Shown here piece after piece: positions 39,324 through 47,728 of a stretch of 64,000 nucleotides of DNA. The notes below the pieces were generated by a model, which saw only the letters and a program-made list of their open reading frames with translations, had not been told where the DNA came from and searched no databases. The position numbers and the translations under genes are program-made. Source of the DNA: Thermoanaerobaculia bacterium. Its GTDB lineage: Bacteria > Acidobacteriota > Thermoanaerobaculia > UBA5066. The stretch covers positions 64,390-128,389 of the forward strand of contig JAJVIN010000029.1 in the NCBI GenBank assembly GCA_022071945.1, read 5' to 3'. The first letter of the stretch is position 1. Each line of letters opens with the position of its first letter.

Positions 39324-40463
39324 TCAGCTCTCCTCGGTCTCGACCTCCAGGACGTCGATCCCCGTACCGAGCCGTGCGATCAGGGACATGGGGTCTCCCT
39401 TGAGCAGGCGCTGCCAGATGGGCCGGCGGACCTTTCCGAAGAGAGCCATCGTCACGCCGTTCTCCCTTGCGAACCTCAACAATTCCCGCCGTGGATCCGT
39501 CCCGGTGAGCCAGATGACCTTGGCCCCGAGTTCCATGGCGAGGACGACGTTGTCCATCAGGAGCCGATGCTGGGTCGCCGTCATCCGCTGGGGGCTCTCG
39601 GCGGGCGTGCGGACATAGACCGCGAACCAGTTCGTGTTCAGCCTCCCCGCGACCGCGGACCCTTTCCTGAGGAGGAGGCGCGTCGTGTCGGGGTTCGACG
39701 ACATCGCGACCATGAGCTTCGTCCCGACGGGCTCGGGTTCGCCGCCGCCCAACTTCGGCCGGCGGGCCGCTTCGAGCTGGTCAGCCGTGCACCGAAGAGC
39801 CAGCTCCCGCAGCGAGGCGAGGTTCTCTTCCTTGAAGAAGTTCGAGAGCGCGGCCTCGATTCTCTCCGCCGGGTAGATCTTCCCGTCGCGGAGCCTCTGG
39901 ATCAGCTCCTCGGAGGGGAGATCGACGTTGATGACGGCATCGGCGTGCGCGAGGAAGCGGTCGGGAATTCGCTCCCGCACCTCGATCCCGGTCACGCGGG
40001 AGACGACCTCCTGGACCGACTCGAAGTGCTGAACGTTGACCGTGGTCATGACCGAGATGCCCTCCTTCAGAATGTCCTCGACATCCTGGTAGCGCTTCTC
40101 GTTCCTCGAACCCGGAACGTTGGTGTGCGCCAGCTCGTCGACCAGGACGAGGGCGGGATGCCTCTCGATAATGGCATCGAGATCCATCTCCTCGAGAATC
40201 CTGCCCTTGTATTCGATCCTCCTTCTCGGCACCATCTCGAGCCCGTCGGCCATCTCGGCGGTCTCCGCGCGGCCGTGCGTTTCGATCAGGCCGGCGACGA
40301 CGTCAACGCCCTGTTCCTTGAGGGCGTGCGCGTCCTCGAGCATCTGGAAGGTCTTGCCGACTCCGGCCGCGTGTCCGAAGTAGATCTTCAGCCGGCCGCG
40401 CTTGGCCCGCTCGATGAGCTGGAGGAACTCGTCGGCGGACGGTCTCTTCGCCTCGGGAGTCAC
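39324..40463 (-). CDS. kdpD: KdpD N-terminal sensor part as a separate protein (KdpD domain + Usp)
   Basis: 379 residues, GTG start. Residues about 20-230 are the KdpD N-terminal domain with the Walker-like FGHAAGVGKTFQML and LVDELAHTNVPGSRN; residues about 245-370 form a universal-stress-protein domain. The transmembrane and kinase parts of normal KdpD are absent; a separate gene at 45874-47310 supplies them. It is the last gene of the kdp operon, 30 bases after kdpC. In full KdpD this part senses potassium and binds small ligands; as a free protein it may regulate the kinase half or the pump. Confidence 0.93.
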   Translation of the reverse strand: MTPEAKRPSADEFLQLIERAKRGRLKIYFGHAAGVGKTFQMLEDAHALKEQGVDVVAGLIETHGRAETAEMADGLEMVPRRRIEYKGRILEEMDLDAIIERHPALVLVDELAHTNVPGSRNEKRYQDVEDILKEGISVMTTVNVQHFESVQEVVSRVTGIEVRERIPDRFLAHADAVINVDLPSEELIQRLRDGKIYPAERIEAALSNFFKEENLASLRELALRCTADQLEAARRPKLGGGEPEPVGTKLMVAMSSNPDTTRLLLRKGSAVAGRLNTNWFAVYVRTPAESPQRMTATQHRLLMDNVVLAMELGAKVIWLTGTDPRRELLRFARENGVTMALFGKVRRPIWQRLLKGDPMSLIARLGTGIDVLEVETEES

Positions 40464-40493: not shown

Positions 40494-41072
40494 TCATCTT
40501 GCCGTCAGGCTCCGGTCGAAGTCCAGATTCGTCAGCAAGACGTTGACACGAGGCTCACCCAGGAGTCCGAGCGTCCGGCCCTCGACATGACGCTCGATCA
40601 CGTCGAGGACGGCCTTCTCGGCGACACCGCGTGCCGCGGCGATGCGCGCGGCCTGCCACCGCGCCGCGTCCGGCGAGAGGTGCGGGTCGAGCCCGGAGGC
40701 GGAAGTCGTGGCGAGATCCGCGGGAACCGCGCCGGACCTGCCGGGCGCCTCCAGGCGGGCCTTCTCGACGCTGGCGGCGATCGCCTTTGCCAGGCCGTCG
40801 CTCGTCGGGCCCTTGTTCGTTCCGCCGGAGGACGTCCCGTCGTAGCCGTCCTTCCCCGCGGCCGATGCTCGCGGGCGCAGGTACTTCGGCCCGGTAAAGT
40901 TCTGCCCGATCAACTCGGACCCCACGACGCGGCCGTTCGCCTCGACGAACGAACCGCGGGCCTTGCCGGGCCAGAAGACGAAAGCCAGGCCCGTCACCAC
41001 GAGGGGGTAGACGACCGAAAGCAGGATCGTCGTGGCGACGACGTAGAGAGAGGACTTCAGGATCAGCTTCAC
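40494..41072 (-). CDS. kdpC: Potassium-transporting ATPase subunit KdpC
   Basis: 192 residues, one N-terminal transmembrane helix (YVVATTILLSVVYPLVVTGLAF) and an extracytoplasmic domain with the family phrases GSELIGQNF, YDGTSSGGTNKGP and SASGLDPHLSPDAA. KdpC stabilises the KdpFABC complex and raises potassium affinity. Ten bases after kdpB. Confidence 0.96.
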   Translation of the reverse strand: MKLILKSSLYVVATTILLSVVYPLVVTGLAFVFWPGKARGSFVEANGRVVGSELIGQNFTGPKYLRPRASAAGKDGYDGTSSGGTNKGPTSDGLAKAIAASVEKARLEAPGRSGAVPADLATTSASGLDPHLSPDAARWQAARIAAARGVAEKAVLDVIERHVEGRTLGLLGEPRVNVLLTNLDFDRSLTAR

Positions 41073-41082
41073 TCCGGCCTCC

Positions 41083-43110
<2,028 letters not shown>

Positions 43111-43121
43111 CTCTCGTTTCC

Positions 43122-44849
43122 TCAGAACAGCTGGCCTTCGGACATGAGGAGATGCTCGACGACGGGGCCCAGCGAGAAGGCCGGGAAGAAGGTGAGCGCT
43201 CCGACGATGAGGACGATCGAGACCAGGAGGACCGTGAAAACGGGCCCGGTCACCGGGAAGGTCCCGGCAGAGGCGGGCAGCTTTCGCTTCCCGGCAAGAG
43301 ATCCCGCGATCGCCAGGATCGGGATCAGCATGAAATAGCGCCCCAGGAACATGTCGATCCCCAGGGTGAGGTTGTAGAAGAGGGTGTTGGCGGAGAGCCC
43401 CGCGAAGGCAGAGCCGTTGTTACCGGCTCCCGAGGTGTAGGCGTAGAGCATCTCCGAGAAGCCGTGCGGACCCTTGTTGTTGAGGCCGGCAAGGCCCGCT
43501 TTCGTGACAGCGGCCAGCGCCGTGAATCCCAGAATCGCCACGGTCAGGACGAGGACGGAGAGCATGGCGAGCTTGACCTCGTGGGCCTCGATCTTCTTTC
43601 CGAGGTACTCCGGGGTCCGGCCGACCATCAGCCCGGCGATGAAGACCGTCAGGACGATGAAGATGAAGATCCCGTAGAGTCCGGCCCCGACACCCCCGAA
43701 GATCACCTCGCCCGTGGCCATGTTCGCGAGGAGAACCAGCCCTCCGAGAGGAGTGAAGGAATCGTGCATGGAATTGACCGCCCCGCAGGAAGCGTCGGTC
43801 GTGACCGTGGCGAAGAGGGCCGAGTCGGTGATGCCGAAGCGGACCTCCTTGCCCTCCATGTTGCCGCCCGTCCCGCCTTCGGTGGGAGCGGAGGCGACAC
43901 CGAGCTTCTGGTGGACCGGGTTCCCCGCCTGCTCCGCCCACGCGGCGGCGAAAGCACCCGAGAGGAACAACAAGGCCATCGCCGAAAAGACCGCCCAGCC
44001 GTGCCGGGGACTGCCGGTCATCAGTCCCAGGGTCCTCGTGAGGGCCGCGCCGATGGCGAAGATCAGGACGGTCTGTACGAAATTGGTTCCCGGAGTCGGG
44101 TTCTCGTAAGGGTGCGCGGAGTTCGCGTTGAAAAAGCCCCCTCCGTTCGTTCCGAACATCTTGATCGCCTCCTGCGAGGCCACGGGTCCCTGGGCGATCT
44201 TCTGGCCGGCTCCCTCGACAGTCGTGATGGTGACGTCTTTCTGGAAATTCTGGACGACGCCGCGAGAGACGAAGAAGAGCGCGGCCAAAAGCGAGACGGG
44301 CAGGAGGACCCAGAGGAGGGCGCGTGTGCAGTCGACGAAGAAGTTCCCGATCCCCTTCGCCTTCTCTCGCGCCAGGCCCCGGATGACGGCGACGGCCACG
44401 GCGATTCCCGTGGCGGCGGAGAGGAAGTTCTGAAAGGCGAGCCCCACCATCTGGGTGAAGTGGGACAGGGTGCTCTCGCCCGAGAACGACTGCCAGTTGG
44501 TGTTGGTGGTGAAGGAGACGGCGGTGTTCCAGGCCAAGTCCGGCGCGACGGCGCCGAACCCGTTCGGGTTCAGCGGGAGAAATGCTTGAAGCCTCTGGAT
44601 GACGTAGAGCGCGACGAGCCCCGCTGTGTTCACCGCGAGCATGGCGATCGTCCACGTCTTCCACGACTGATCCTCGTCCGGGTCGATTCCAGTGACCCTG
44701 TAGATCAGATTCTCGGCAGGCAGGAGCACCGGATCGAGGAACGTCTTTTCTCTCGAGAACACCCGCTTCATGAACGCGCCGAGGGGCGGGGTGAGGGCGA
44801 GGACCACGCCGAAGAAGACGAGGATCTTGGAGATGGCGAGCACTGTCAT
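43122..44849 (-). CDS. kdpA: Potassium-transporting ATPase channel subunit KdpA
   Basis: 575 residues, about ten membrane helices, forming the selectivity filter of the Kdp pump; filter-like loops are visible as [28 protein letters not shown], and [13 protein letters not shown] start at the ATG at 44849 ([13 protein letters not shown]), which fits the family and comes directly after kdpF; the longer frame upstream covers kdpF in a different frame. Confidence 0.97.
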
Positions 44850-44853
44850 GGCT

Positions 44854-44943
44854 CTAGACCTCTTCCGCCCGGACCATCGACCAGAACAAGTAAGCGAGGA
44901 GACCACCCATGACAACGAGACCGAGGATGTCTTCCCAACCCAT
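44854..44943 (-). CDS. kdpF: KdpF, small membrane subunit of the Kdp ATPase
   Basis: 29 residues (too short for usual gene callers): MGWEDILGLVVM, a hydrophobic helix continuing GGLLAYLFW, then the short polar tail VRAEEV. Position directly before kdpA, single transmembrane helix and the AYLFW...E pattern are those of KdpF, the lipid-like stabilising subunit. Four bases separate its stop from the kdpA start. Confidence 0.85.
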   Translation of the reverse strand: MGWEDILGLVVMGGLLAYLFWSMVRAEEV

Positions 44944-44954
44944 GACAGCCTCCC

Positions 44955-45038
44955 CTAAACCTCGTCGCACCCGTGGACGTACCGGACCGCGGCCAGGAAA
45001 AGGACGAGAGTGAGAACCAGGAAAAGTGCGTCCTGCAT
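44955..45038 (-). CDS. 27-residue membrane peptide preceding kdpF
   Basis: MQDALFLVLTLVLFLAAVRY followed by VHGCDEV: one transmembrane helix and a short tail with a Cys-Asp-Glu end. It is the first open frame of the kdp structural operon, 11 bases before kdpF. I recall similar tiny proteins ending in (R/H)GCD next to kdp genes in other bacteria, usually left unannotated, which supports its being real. Possibly a second small subunit or regulator of the pump. Confidence 0.65.
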   Translation of the reverse strand: MQDALFLVLTLVLFLAAVRYVHGCDEV

Positions 45039-45068
45039 GAGGGAAATGTAAGGACGCGCCATAAGGAA

Positions 45069-45189
45069 GTCCGGACGAGGTCCGAATAGAGTTCGGATGA
45101 AGTTCGAACGAAGTTCGAAGGAGGTTCGAACGAAGTTCGAAGGAGGTTCGAACGAAGTTCGAAAGAGGTCCGAAGGGAATCCGAAGGCC
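45069..45189. repeat. Eleven tandem 11-bp repeats upstream of the kdp operon, candidate KdpE operator array
   Basis: The region divides exactly into eleven consecutive 11-base units with consensus GTTCGAANGAR. The central six or seven are nearly identical and alternate between GTTCGAACGAA and GTTCGAAGGAG; the ends decay (GTCCGGACGAG at one end, ATCCGAAGGCC at the other). It fills the gap between the kdpE stop and the start of the kdp transcription unit. OmpR/PhoB-family regulators, to which KdpE belongs, bind direct repeats with an 11-bp period, each with about seven conserved bases and a four-base spacer, exactly this format. Confidence 0.9.
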
Positions 45190-45193
45190 GGGG

Positions 45194-45877
45194 CTACTCG
45201 CCCGTCACGAACCGGTATCCCACCCAGGGCTCCGTCCGGATCAGCCTGGGCTGGTCAGGGTTCTCCTCGATCTTCCGGCGGAGGCTTCCGATCTGGACCC
45301 GCAGGGCGTCGCTCGTCGCGCCATCGGCCGAGCCCCAGACGGTCGCGATCAGCTGCCGGTGCGTCCAGACGATTCCTGGACGGCTGAGAAAGGTCTTCAG
45401 GAGGGTGAACTCGGTGGGAGTGAGCCGCTGTTCCTGTCCGCCCCGCTCGACCCGGCGAGCCGCGAGGTCGATCGCGAGGCTCCCGATCTGGATGACCTCG
45501 CCCGCTTCCCTGACCCCGGTCCGGCGCCTCAACACGGTCCGGGTCCGGGCCAGGAATTCGGCGAGTCCGAAGGGCTTGACGATGTAGTCGTCGGCCCCGG
45601 CGTCCAGAAGCCTCACCTTCTCCCGTTCCTCGCCACGGACCGTGAGGATCAAGACCGGGACGTCGGACTTGTGCCGGATCGAACGGAGCAAGGAGAAGCC
45701 GTCCTTCCCTGGCATGGCCAGGTCGGTGACGACGAGGTCGAAGGTCTCGGAGAGAAAGGCCTCCATCGCCTCCTCTCCGTCGGCGGCCGTGACGACCTCG
45801 TGCCCTTCCCGGATGAGGGCATCGCGGAGTCCCTTTCGAATGGCGATGTCGTCGTCGACCACGAGGATCTTGCTCAT
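45194..45877 (-). CDS. kdpE: KdpE response regulator (OmpR family)
   Basis: 227 residues. Receiver domain 1-115 with phospho-acceptor Asp in LVVTDLAMPGKDGF, the DD pair near residue 8, and Lys in YIVKPFG; winged-helix DNA-binding domain about 130-225 (LTPTEFTLLKTFLSRPG, RVQIGSLRRKIE, VGYRF). It activates the kdp operon when potassium or turgor is low. The start overlaps the kinase stop by four bases (ATGA). The operon it controls begins just past the 11-bp repeat array. Confidence 0.95.
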   Translation of the reverse strand: MSKILVVDDDIAIRKGLRDALIREGHEVVTAADGEEAMEAFLSETFDLVVTDLAMPGKDGFSLLRSIRHKSDVPVLILTVRGEEREKVRLLDAGADDYIVKPFGLAEFLARTRTVLRRRTGVREAGEVIQIGSLAIDLAARRVERGGQEQRLTPTEFTLLKTFLSRPGIVWTHRQLIATVWGSADGATSDALRVQIGSLRRKIEENPDQPRLIRTEPWVGYRFVTGE

Positions 45878-47310
45878 GCGGCCACCGGCAGACTGATCTC
45901 GAAGGAGGTCCCGCCCAGCGGGGAGGCCCCGAGGCTGACGGTCCCTCCGTTCAGTTCGACGAGAGTCCGGGCAATGTAGAGTCCGAGGCCGCTTCCGGGC
46001 GTCTCGGTCCCGCCGAGCCGGACGAACTTCTCGAGCGCTCTCTCCCTCTCGGGCGCCGGAATCCCGGGTCCGGAGTCCTCCACCCTGAGAACGACCCCGC
46101 CCTGCCGGGAAACTGCCGTGAGACGAACCCGGGCTCCATTGGGAGAGTAGCGGGCGGCGTTCTCCAATCCCAGCCCGAGAGCCTCCGTCACCTGAGCGGG
46201 ATCGACGTCCACGTACCAGTCCGCTCGTGGCATCTCGACCTGGAATGTGTGCTCGATCAGGAGCTCGCCGAACCGGGCCACGGCCGCTTCCAGGATCGCG
46301 TTGGCGGAAACCCGCTCCCTGGCAGCCTTCGCCGTGCCGGACTCCAGGCGGACGACGTTCAGCAGGTCGTCGATCAGGCGGGTCAGCCGCTCGATCGCCT
46401 CCCGCGCTTCGCGCGACTCCTCCGACCCGCCGGTCCGCAGATCGAGGTTCTCCACGGCCATCCTGGCCCCCGTCACCGGGGTCTTCAGGTCGTGGGCGAG
46501 GGTTGCCAGGAGCGTGGACTTGATCTCATCCCTGGCCCGGATCTCTTCCGACGTTCTCGCGATCCGGACGAACTTCTCGCGCTCGAGCGCGACGGCCAGG
46601 AGCGCGGCACATCCCTCCACCATCCGCTCGCTCACGTCGACTCCGTGAGCCACCAGGGCCCCGATCGGCTGGACCCCGAGCCGGATGGGTAGATAGACAT
46701 CCTGCCCCCTCCCCTCGGACGGGAACGTCGCGGACGTCCCCTGCCTGTAGGCGAGATCGCGCAGCTCCTGCTTGATCTCCTTTTCTTCGCCGGAGGACGC
46801 GGAGAGAGTGAGCCGGCCTGTCTCATCGGCCAGGTAGACACGCACGGAGGAGCACTCGAAGGCCTTGCGGAGCCGCTCCGCGGCCACCGCCAGAAGGGAC
46901 TCCCGGTTCGTGTCGGTCAAGAACGCCTGCGAGAGCTGGGTCAGGGTGATCAGATCCCGCCTTTCGGCCTCGACCTGTCGAAGCCTCAGCCGGGATGTTG
47001 CCGAGAGCCGGCCGATGACGAGAGCGACCCCGAGGAACACCAGGAGACCAACGACGTTTCTCGGATCCTCGATGGTGAATGTGTGGATGGGGGGGAGGAA
47101 GAAGAAGTTCAGGCCGAGAGTCGCCAGGACGGCTGCCAGGGCCCCGGGCCCGCTTTCCCACACCCGGGCGATGGTGAAGACCGCGACGAGAAGGACGAGA
47201 GCGTGCGTGGCGTCCGTCAGCGCGGGAAAGAGCCGGAGCAAACCGATCGTGACGCACACGAGAATGGCAGCCGCCGGGTAGCCGAGCCGGGGAGAGAGGA
47301 GGCGCTTCAC
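45874..47310 (-). CDS. kdpD: KdpD-type sensor histidine kinase half (DUF4118 + GAF-like + HisKA + HATPase)
   Basis: 478 residues, GTG start. Four membrane helices (about 12-108) form the DUF4118 domain of KdpD, with LGLNFFFLPPIHTFTI; a GAF-like region follows (about 140-250), then HisKA with the phosphorylated His in LAHDLKTPVTGARMA, and the ATPase domain with ENAARYSP, DSGPGIP and GSGLGLYIA. The cytosolic N-terminal KdpD and Usp domains are missing and are encoded separately at 39324-40463. Together the two genes rebuild a whole KdpD. Coupled to kdpE. Confidence 0.94.
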   Translation of the reverse strand: MKRLLSPRLGYPAAAILVCVTIGLLRLFPALTDATHALVLLVAVFTIARVWESGPGALAAVLATLGLNFFFLPPIHTFTIEDPRNVVGLLVFLGVALVIGRLSATSRLRLRQVEAERRDLITLTQLSQAFLTDTNRESLLAVAAERLRKAFECSSVRVYLADETGRLTLSASSGEEKEIKQELRDLAYRQGTSATFPSEGRGQDVYLPIRLGVQPIGALVAHGVDVSERMVEGCAALLAVALEREKFVRIARTSEEIRARDEIKSTLLATLAHDLKTPVTGARMAVENLDLRTGGSEESREAREAIERLTRLIDDLLNVVRLESGTAKAARERVSANAILEAAVARFGELLIEHTFQVEMPRADWYVDVDPAQVTEALGLGLENAARYSPNGARVRLTAVSRQGGVVLRVEDSGPGIPAPERERALEKFVRLGGTETPGSGLGLYIARTLVELNGGTVSLGASPLGGTSFEISLPVAA

Positions 47311-47360: not shown

Positions 47361-47444
47361 TCACAGCTCCCGGTCCCGATCCAGTAGCGAGAGGACGAAT
47401 CTCCTGACGCTGGCGATCCGGACGAAGAGCCCGAGTTCAGCCAT
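47361..47444 (-). CDS. 27-residue peptide A upstream of the kdpD kinase gene
   Basis: MAELGLFVRIASVRRFVLSL then LDRDREL. Amphipathic/basic, clearly a relative of peptide B at 47523-47606 (MA[ED]LGL..., VLSL[LM]DR...EL in the same positions, same length). Its ribosome site is degraded (CCAGAGAG) compared with peptide B. Possibly a decaying duplicate. Confidence 0.5.
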   Translation of the reverse strand: MAELGLFVRIASVRRFVLSLLDRDREL

Positions 47445-47522
47445 CTCATCTCTCTGGAGCGTCGCGGTCCGGGGCTTGTGGAGGGGCAGCGGCGTGGCGA
47501 GCAAGGCCCGGTCCCCAACGAT

Positions 47523-47606
47523 CTACAACTCGCCGCCCCGGTCCATGAGCGAGAGAACGACCTTTCCGATGATGGCGATGAGTGCCAGGAGCCCGAGGTC
47601 TGCCAT
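47523..47606 (-). CDS. 27-residue hydrophobic peptide B upstream of the kdpD kinase gene
   Basis: MADLGLLALIAIIGKVVLSL then MDRGGEL, with a GGAGG site seven bases before the ATG. The central 17 residues are hydrophobic and may cross or coat the membrane. A paralogue (peptide A) follows in tandem. Too short for normal gene callers; the matching reading frame and length of the two copies argue for real translation. Function unknown; a small regulator of the kinase or a type I toxin-like peptide are options. Confidence 0.55.
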   Translation of the reverse strand: MADLGLLALIAIIGKVVLSLMDRGGEL

Positions 47607-47728
47607 GTTGTGCCTCCGGAGCGCCGCAGACTGGCTGGACCGCTCCGAATAGAGAATGGGGCGGACCCGCGAAGGAAGTCCGGAGCGCTTTCTAAGGGAA
47701 TGCTAAGAATCGCGCGGGCAGGAAGCGG

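What the first reader, a model, noticed from the sequence alone, without database searches (positions are those of the whole stretch)
45069..45189. Eleven-unit 11-bp repeat array as a multi-site KdpE operator
The region is built of consecutive 11-base units without a break. OmpR/PhoB regulators bind direct repeats of exactly this period. Two such units make one usual dimer site; here there is room for five or more dimers, all on one helix face, just upstream of the kdp transcription unit. Such a long operator could give a steep, cooperative response. The alternating unit types suggest growth by 22-bp duplications.
Basis: partly seen in the sequence, partly recalled or inferred. Interest (0 to 1): 0.8.

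Follow-up and report, generated by a model that had tools for sequence, protein, structure and literature searches.

The report
Eleven-unit KdpE operator upstream of kdpFABC
An acidobacterium carries, just ahead of its emergency potassium-pump genes, eleven tandem copies of what is very probably the landing site of its potassium-stress regulator KdpE, where related species carry three, which makes a natural test of what extra regulator sites do.

Summary
The array is real: eleven 11-bp units fill 45067-45187 (minus strand), between kdpE and kdpFABC, and no other place in the 6.17 Mb genome matches two adjacent units of its core. The operator reading is well supported by phylogenetic footprinting. 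Relatives in the same class (phylum inferred: Acidobacteriota) carry the same element at kdp loci: three 11-bp half-sites, [CTTTMGNNNTT][CTTTCGNNNTC][CTTCCGGACTT], then 17 bp, then a -10-like hexamer. A strict three-unit pattern hit 25 places in 149 genomes, 23 of them at kdp loci; the reversed control hit none. This genome also has an ordinary three-unit copy ahead of kdpDE. The window array is that operator expanded from 3 to 11 half-sites, with the promoter-proximal unit kept. KdpE binding is likely but inferred, not measured. A steep cooperative response is plausible and untested; neutral expansion is not excluded. "All on one helix face" is overstated: at 11 bp per unit the face drifts about 170 degrees over the array. 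It is a new variant of a known kind: multi-repeat operators of OmpR/PhoB regulators (up to six repeats in the Streptomyces PhoP cases read here).

The parts
45067..45187 (-). Eleven tandem 11-bp KdpE half-sites (expanded kdpFABC operator); unit 3 (45155-45165, CTTTCGAACTT) is identical to the distal half-site of several relatives, unit 11 (45067-45077, CGTCCGGACTT) is the conserved promoter-proximal half-site
   Evidence: weight matrix built from relatives only scores the best triple here at 38.8 bits against at most 9.8 elsewhere in the window
45045..45050 (-). Putative -10 hexamer TACATT of the kdpFABC promoter, 16 bp after the GGACTT of unit 11 (17 bp in relatives)
   Evidence: position of a conserved -10-like hexamer in relatives; in the window it is 1 bp closer
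44955..45038 (-). Small membrane-peptide ORF (MQDALFLVLTLVLFLAAVRYVHGCDEV) ahead of kdpF; its ATG lies 6 nt after the -10, so its mRNA may be leaderless
   Evidence: sequence; similar small ORF at the same place in most relatives
44854..44943 (-). kdpF
   Evidence: sequence and position
43122..44849 (-). kdpA
   Evidence: Pfam KdpA, 7.9e-241
41083..43110 (-). kdpB
   Evidence: E1-E2 ATPase and HAD hydrolase domains
40494..41072 (-). kdpC
   Evidence: Pfam KdpC, 7.6e-62
39324..40463 (-). Separate KdpD sensor-domain protein (split KdpD)
   Evidence: Pfam KdpD, 4.5e-96
45194..45877 (-). kdpE, OmpR/PhoB-family response regulator
   Evidence: Response_reg and Trans_reg_C; best solved relative E. 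coli KdpE 4kny, E 2e-51; residues aligned to E. coli R193, R200 and T215 are identical
45874..47310 (-). Kinase half of KdpD (DUF4118, HisKA, HATPase_c; no KdpD domain)
47676..47708 (-). Ordinary three-unit KdpE operator (TCTTAGCATTC CCTTAGAAAGC GCTCCGGACTT) upstream of kdpDE, with CATTCT at the standard distance
   Evidence: only other exact match to the operator pattern in the whole genome; sequence, aligned

Best explanation
The array is the KdpE operator of the kdpFABC promoter. The standard layout in its clade is three 11-bp direct half-sites, the last overlapping the -35 region, 17 bp from a -10 hexamer, as expected where an activator stands in for a good -35. In this lineage the operator grew from three to eleven half-sites, partly by 22-bp duplications, with the promoter-proximal unit kept. 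Under potassium limitation KdpD would phosphorylate KdpE; KdpE~P would bind the units head to tail (five pairs plus one), the proximal pair contacting RNA polymerase. The extra units would raise occupancy and local concentration of KdpE~P and so lower the threshold or steepen the response compared with the three-unit operator that the same genome has ahead of kdpDE. Shown by sequence: the array, the three-unit operator in relatives, its fixed link to a promoter and to kdp loci. Inferred: binding by KdpE and activation. Guessed: the effect of the extra units. The confidence given is for the operator identity and its expansion; for the functional effect of the extra units it is about 0.4.
For: Three half-sites of the same motif, register and place in about two dozen genomes of the class. 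Strict pattern: 25 hits in 149 genomes, 23 on the same contig and within about 5 kb of kdpE or kdpA, 0 reversed-control hits. Fixed spacing to a -10-like hexamer (A at position 2, T at position 6) in 26 of all 32 distinct matches and in 23 of a cleaned set of 25. A matrix trained without the window picks the array at 38.8 bits. The only other site in the genome is upstream of kdpDE. KdpE keeps the three residues found important for DNA binding in E. coli KdpE (PMC3264566). The E. coli KdpE site also has an 11-bp period: 6-bp direct repeats separated by 5 bp (PMC3264566). In a family of the class whose KdpE has a different recognition helix (L196, L197) the kdp upstream region shows a different 11-bp repeat, TTGAC/TTGAT (L023, L024).
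Against: No binding or expression data. The isolated E. coli DNA-binding domain showed no significant cooperativity between half-sites (PMC3264566). Variation within the array does not prove selection on the extra units. The window's -10 is 1 bp closer than in relatives. Position 2 of the unit, mostly T in relatives, varies in the array.
Confidence: 0.82

Rival explanations
1. Neutral expansion: slippage or unequal crossing-over multiplied a three-unit KdpE operator; only the two or three proximal units matter, the rest is passive.
For: Perfect 22-bp copies among the inner units; most relatives manage with three units; only one genome with eleven is seen.
Against: The outer units have diverged by several bases, yet all eleven keep the core T-Y-C-G-R-A in register and no indel has broken the phase; this is weak, because that many invariant positions are not unusual by chance with so few mismatches.
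Confidence: 0.4
2. KdpE sink: the extra sites mainly titrate KdpE~P, delaying or buffering the response of kdpDE autoregulation or of other targets.
For: Eleven half-sites compete with a three-unit operator at kdpDE in the same genome.
Against: The array abuts the promoter in the standard activating position; eleven sites would hardly deplete a regulator present in more than a few dozen copies (general knowledge).
Confidence: 0.1
3. RNA element: in read-through transcripts from kdpE the array folds into a long hairpin that insulates or processes the kdpDE-kdpFABC mRNA.
For: RNA fold -41.7 kcal/mol, z -5.8; the array starts 6 nt after the kdpE stop.
Against: Stability does not depend on unit order (mean -38.0 for shuffled order against -38.4 observed), so it follows from the self-complementary TTCGAA core, which is already in the half-site of relatives. 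No U-run terminator at the end of the hairpin.
Confidence: 0.06
4. An unrelated 11-bp minisatellite with a TTCG core, of the kind common in Bacteroidota, that happens to lie here.
For: TTCG arrays of period 11 are widespread.
Against: Relatives have the same motif, register and promoter spacing at the same place; none of the fetched arrays from elsewhere has kdpA or a close kdpE beside it.
Confidence: 0.02

Closest known systems
E. coli KdpE binding site of kdpFABC (PMC3264566)
   Same: Direct half-sites with 11-bp period just upstream of the kdpFABC promoter; cognate response regulator with the same DNA-contact residues
   Different: E. coli has two AT-rich half-sites (TTTATA, TTTACA) within -72 to -50; here eleven TTCGAAC-type half-sites that reach the -35 region
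Complex PhoP operators of Streptomyces (11-nt direct repeat units; PMC7866108)
   Same: OmpR/PhoB-family regulator, consecutive 11-nt direct repeats, some overlapping -35, several EMSA complexes, extra weaker repeats that fill later (pitH2: four core plus two)
   Different: Phosphate regulon; at most six repeats in the cases read here, eleven in the window, for KdpE
E. coli PHO box and PhoB (PMC4415409)
   Same: Head-to-tail 11-nt units; activator stands in for the -35 element (the latter from general knowledge)
   Different: Two units per box, different regulator and motif

Membership tests
KdpE operator of a kdpFABC promoter | Direct repeats with 11-bp period upstream of kdpFABC | tested here: met
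KdpE operator of a kdpFABC promoter | Motif conserved at kdp loci of relatives and specific to them | tested here: met
   25 hits in 149 genomes, 23 at kdp loci, 0 control hits
KdpE operator of a kdpFABC promoter | Fixed geometry to a promoter | tested here: met
   -10-like hexamer at fixed distance in 26 of 32 matches; in the window 1 bp shorter
KdpE operator of a kdpFABC promoter | Cognate KdpE with conserved DNA-contact residues encoded next to it | tested here: met
KdpE operator of a kdpFABC promoter | KdpE binds it and activates under K+ limitation | not testable with these tools
   needs footprint and reporter
Complex multi-repeat operator of OmpR/PhoB regulators (Streptomyces PhoP type) | More than two consecutive 11-nt repeats, one overlapping -35 | tested here: met
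Complex multi-repeat operator of OmpR/PhoB regulators (Streptomyces PhoP type) | Stepwise or cooperative occupancy of the repeats | not testable with these tools
   needs EMSA or footprint
RNA hairpin element | Structure beyond what the repeated palindromic core itself gives | tested here: not met
   stable, but independent of unit order

The most novel reading that the evidence does not exclude
The lineage lengthened a three-half-site KdpE operator to eleven so that KdpE~P assembles head to tail along 121 bp, giving kdpFABC an ultrasensitive or lowered-threshold switch while kdpDE in the same genome keeps ordinary three-unit control; unit number would be an evolvable tuning knob.
Probability: 0.3. 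Interest if true: 0.65.

Novelty: new variant of a known kind. Interest (0 to 1): 0.45.

Why it matters
It gives a likely KdpE operator and promoter architecture for a little-studied phylum. It also offers a natural pair inside one genome (3 and 11 half-sites for the same regulator), and a 3/6/11 series among relatives, to ask whether operator length sets the threshold and steepness of a two-component response.

Tried and rejected
A class-wide pattern search with a one-base spacing slip before the third unit gave 0 hits; the corrected (and slightly looser) pattern gave 25, so the slip served as an accidental phase control. A search of 396 genomes of the phylum for five TYCG units found arrays in ten other genomes, none with kdpA or kdpE in the fetched flanks. 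Variation within the array as evidence for selection: four positions (T3, C5, G6, A8) never vary, but with about 13 mismatches over 11 positions about three untouched positions are expected by chance (hand estimate), so I dropped it. A simple sigma-70 consensus scan found no promoter, as expected for an activator-dependent one. RNA hairpin: see rivals. A key paper on Streptomyces direct repeats (PMC2275107) is not held, so the largest repeat number known there is not settled.

Full report
Observation. On the minus strand, which is the coding strand of the whole kdp cluster, eleven 11-bp units run without a break from 45187 to 45067. They fill the gap between the kdpE stop codon (45194) and the small ORF, kdpF and kdpA. 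The periodicity is far beyond chance: 76 of 100 positions match at lag 11, while shuffles of the same stretch reach at most 45. In the whole 6.17 Mb genome the two-unit core TTCGRAYN4TTCGRAY occurs only here, eight times overlapping, with no control hit. The inner units alternate with a 22-bp period.

What it is. I compared kdp loci of the class. Just after kdpE, upstream of kdpFABC or of other genes at these loci, relatives carry three half-sites with 11-bp period, for example CTTTCGAACTT CTTTCGAAATC CTTCCGGACTT (L179) or CTTTAGAGACT CTTTCGACCTC CTTCCGGACTT (L015). A weight matrix built from eleven such operators, without the window, scores the window array at 38.8 bits for its best triple; the best place in the window outside the array scores 9.8. 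A strict pattern for three units, TYMGN7TYMGN7TYCGGACTTC, matched 25 places in 149 genomes of the class. By contig and position 23 of them lie within about 5 kb of a kdpE or kdpA found; the other two (L239, L242) lack the promoter geometry and may be chance. The reversed pattern matched nowhere. In the window's own genome the pattern has just two exact matches: the proximal end of the array, and an ordinary three-unit operator at 47676-47708, upstream of kdpDE.

Promoter. Of the 32 distinct operator matches aligned on the proximal half-site, 26 have A at the second and T at the sixth position of a hexamer 17 bp after GGACTT. In a cleaned set of 25 (window array, probable chance hits, phase-broken or degenerate cases and near-duplicates left out; the genome's own kdpDE operator included) it is 23, against at most 3 at any other offset tried. 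The genomes are related, so these are not all independent. This is the pattern of a sigma-70-type -10 element. It puts the proximal half-site over the -35 region, at about -40 to -30 if transcription starts 7 nt after the hexamer. In the window the corresponding TACATT (45050-45045) is 1 bp closer, and the array covers about -29 to -149.

Regulator. The neighbouring gene encodes an OmpR/PhoB response regulator whose best solved relative is E. coli KdpE (E 2e-51). The residues aligned with R193, R200 and T215, found important for DNA binding in E. coli (PMC3264566), are identical. One family of the class has a KdpE with a different recognition helix (HYVRVYVAQLRRK instead of DTVRVHVGSLRRK); its kdp upstream regions lack this motif and show a different 11-bp repeat, CTTGACATTTT CTTGATGTCGA in L023 and CCTTGACCTTT CCTTGATTCCG in L024. 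This fits a regulator and its operator changing together, but rests on few cases seen by eye.

Unit number. By the matrix count nearly all relatives have three consecutive units (a few score four with a weak end unit), G023 (L014) has six degenerate units, the window eleven. Among 396 genomes of the phylum only the window has five or more TYCG units at a kdp locus. So this is an expansion of a standard three-unit operator. Unit 11 still has the proximal type (CGTCCGGACTT) and unit 3 equals the distal type of several relatives (CTTTCGAACTT), so the promoter end was kept while the array grew.

How it probably works. The array most likely binds phosphorylated KdpE along its length, with the proximal units doing the activation. 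That extra half-sites steepen the response or lower its threshold is a reasonable guess from complex PhoP operators of Streptomyces, where extra repeats fill as protein rises (PMC7866108). It is not shown here. The isolated E. coli KdpE DNA-binding domain bound its two half-sites without significant cooperativity (PMC3264566), so cooperativity would have to come from elsewhere, such as the receiver domains. At 11 bp per unit and about 10.5 bp per turn the binding face turns about 17 degrees per unit, about 170 degrees end to end, so the units do not all lie on one face.

Rivals. Neutral expansion fits the 22-bp copies and cannot be excluded; the invariant positions within the array do not prove selection. 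The RNA of the array folds well (z -5.8), but shuffling the order of the units leaves the energy unchanged, so the folding is a by-product of the self-complementary TTCGAA core. TTCG arrays of period 11 are frequent in Bacteroidota and other groups, but those fetched are not at kdp operons. The number of units rests on one assembled contig; an assembly error in a short array cannot be excluded here.

Origin. The phylum is inferred to be Acidobacteriota: a same-phylum genome (G473) carries at the same contig coordinates the same sequence as a record named Acidobacteria bacterium S012_49 (L096 and L204). No name for the window's own species was available.

Noticed in passing
window 39324-40463 and 45874-47310: KdpD is split: the KdpD sensor domain is a separate protein at the end of the kdpFABC operon, and the kinase half (DUF4118, HisKA, HATPase) sits upstream with kdpE.
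   Followed up: partly
window 47361-47606 (minus strand): Two similar tiny ORFs (MADLGLLALIAIIGKVVLSLMDRGGEL and MAELGLFVRIASVRRFVLSLLDRDREL) lie between the three-unit KdpE operator and the kinase gene; they look like paralogous micropeptides.
   Followed up: no
window 44955-45038; same place in most kdp loci of the class: A conserved small membrane peptide is encoded just before kdpF; one family has a further tiny ORF before it. In many of these promoters the start codon lies about 6-8 nt after the -10-like hexamer, which suggests leaderless mRNAs.
   Followed up: partly
L078, L087, L034, L064, L103, L135, L097, L121, L063: Long degenerate 11-bp arrays with a conserved TTCG (up to 19 units), mostly in Bacteroidota, intergenic or beside TonB-receptor-like and other genes; function unknown to me, no description found in one literature search.
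   Followed up: partly
L190 (G008:C64:1-8000): Three KdpE-like regulators and several three-unit operators within 8 kb, beside kdpA: a duplicated kdp regulatory cluster.
   Followed up: no
L014 (G023), from 1088: Six consecutive degenerate KdpE-type units upstream of kdp, an intermediate between 3 and 11.
   Followed up: partly
L023, L024 (G057, G030): kdp upstream regions with a different 11-bp repeat (CTTGAC/CTTGAT) in a family whose KdpE has another recognition helix.
   Followed up: partly
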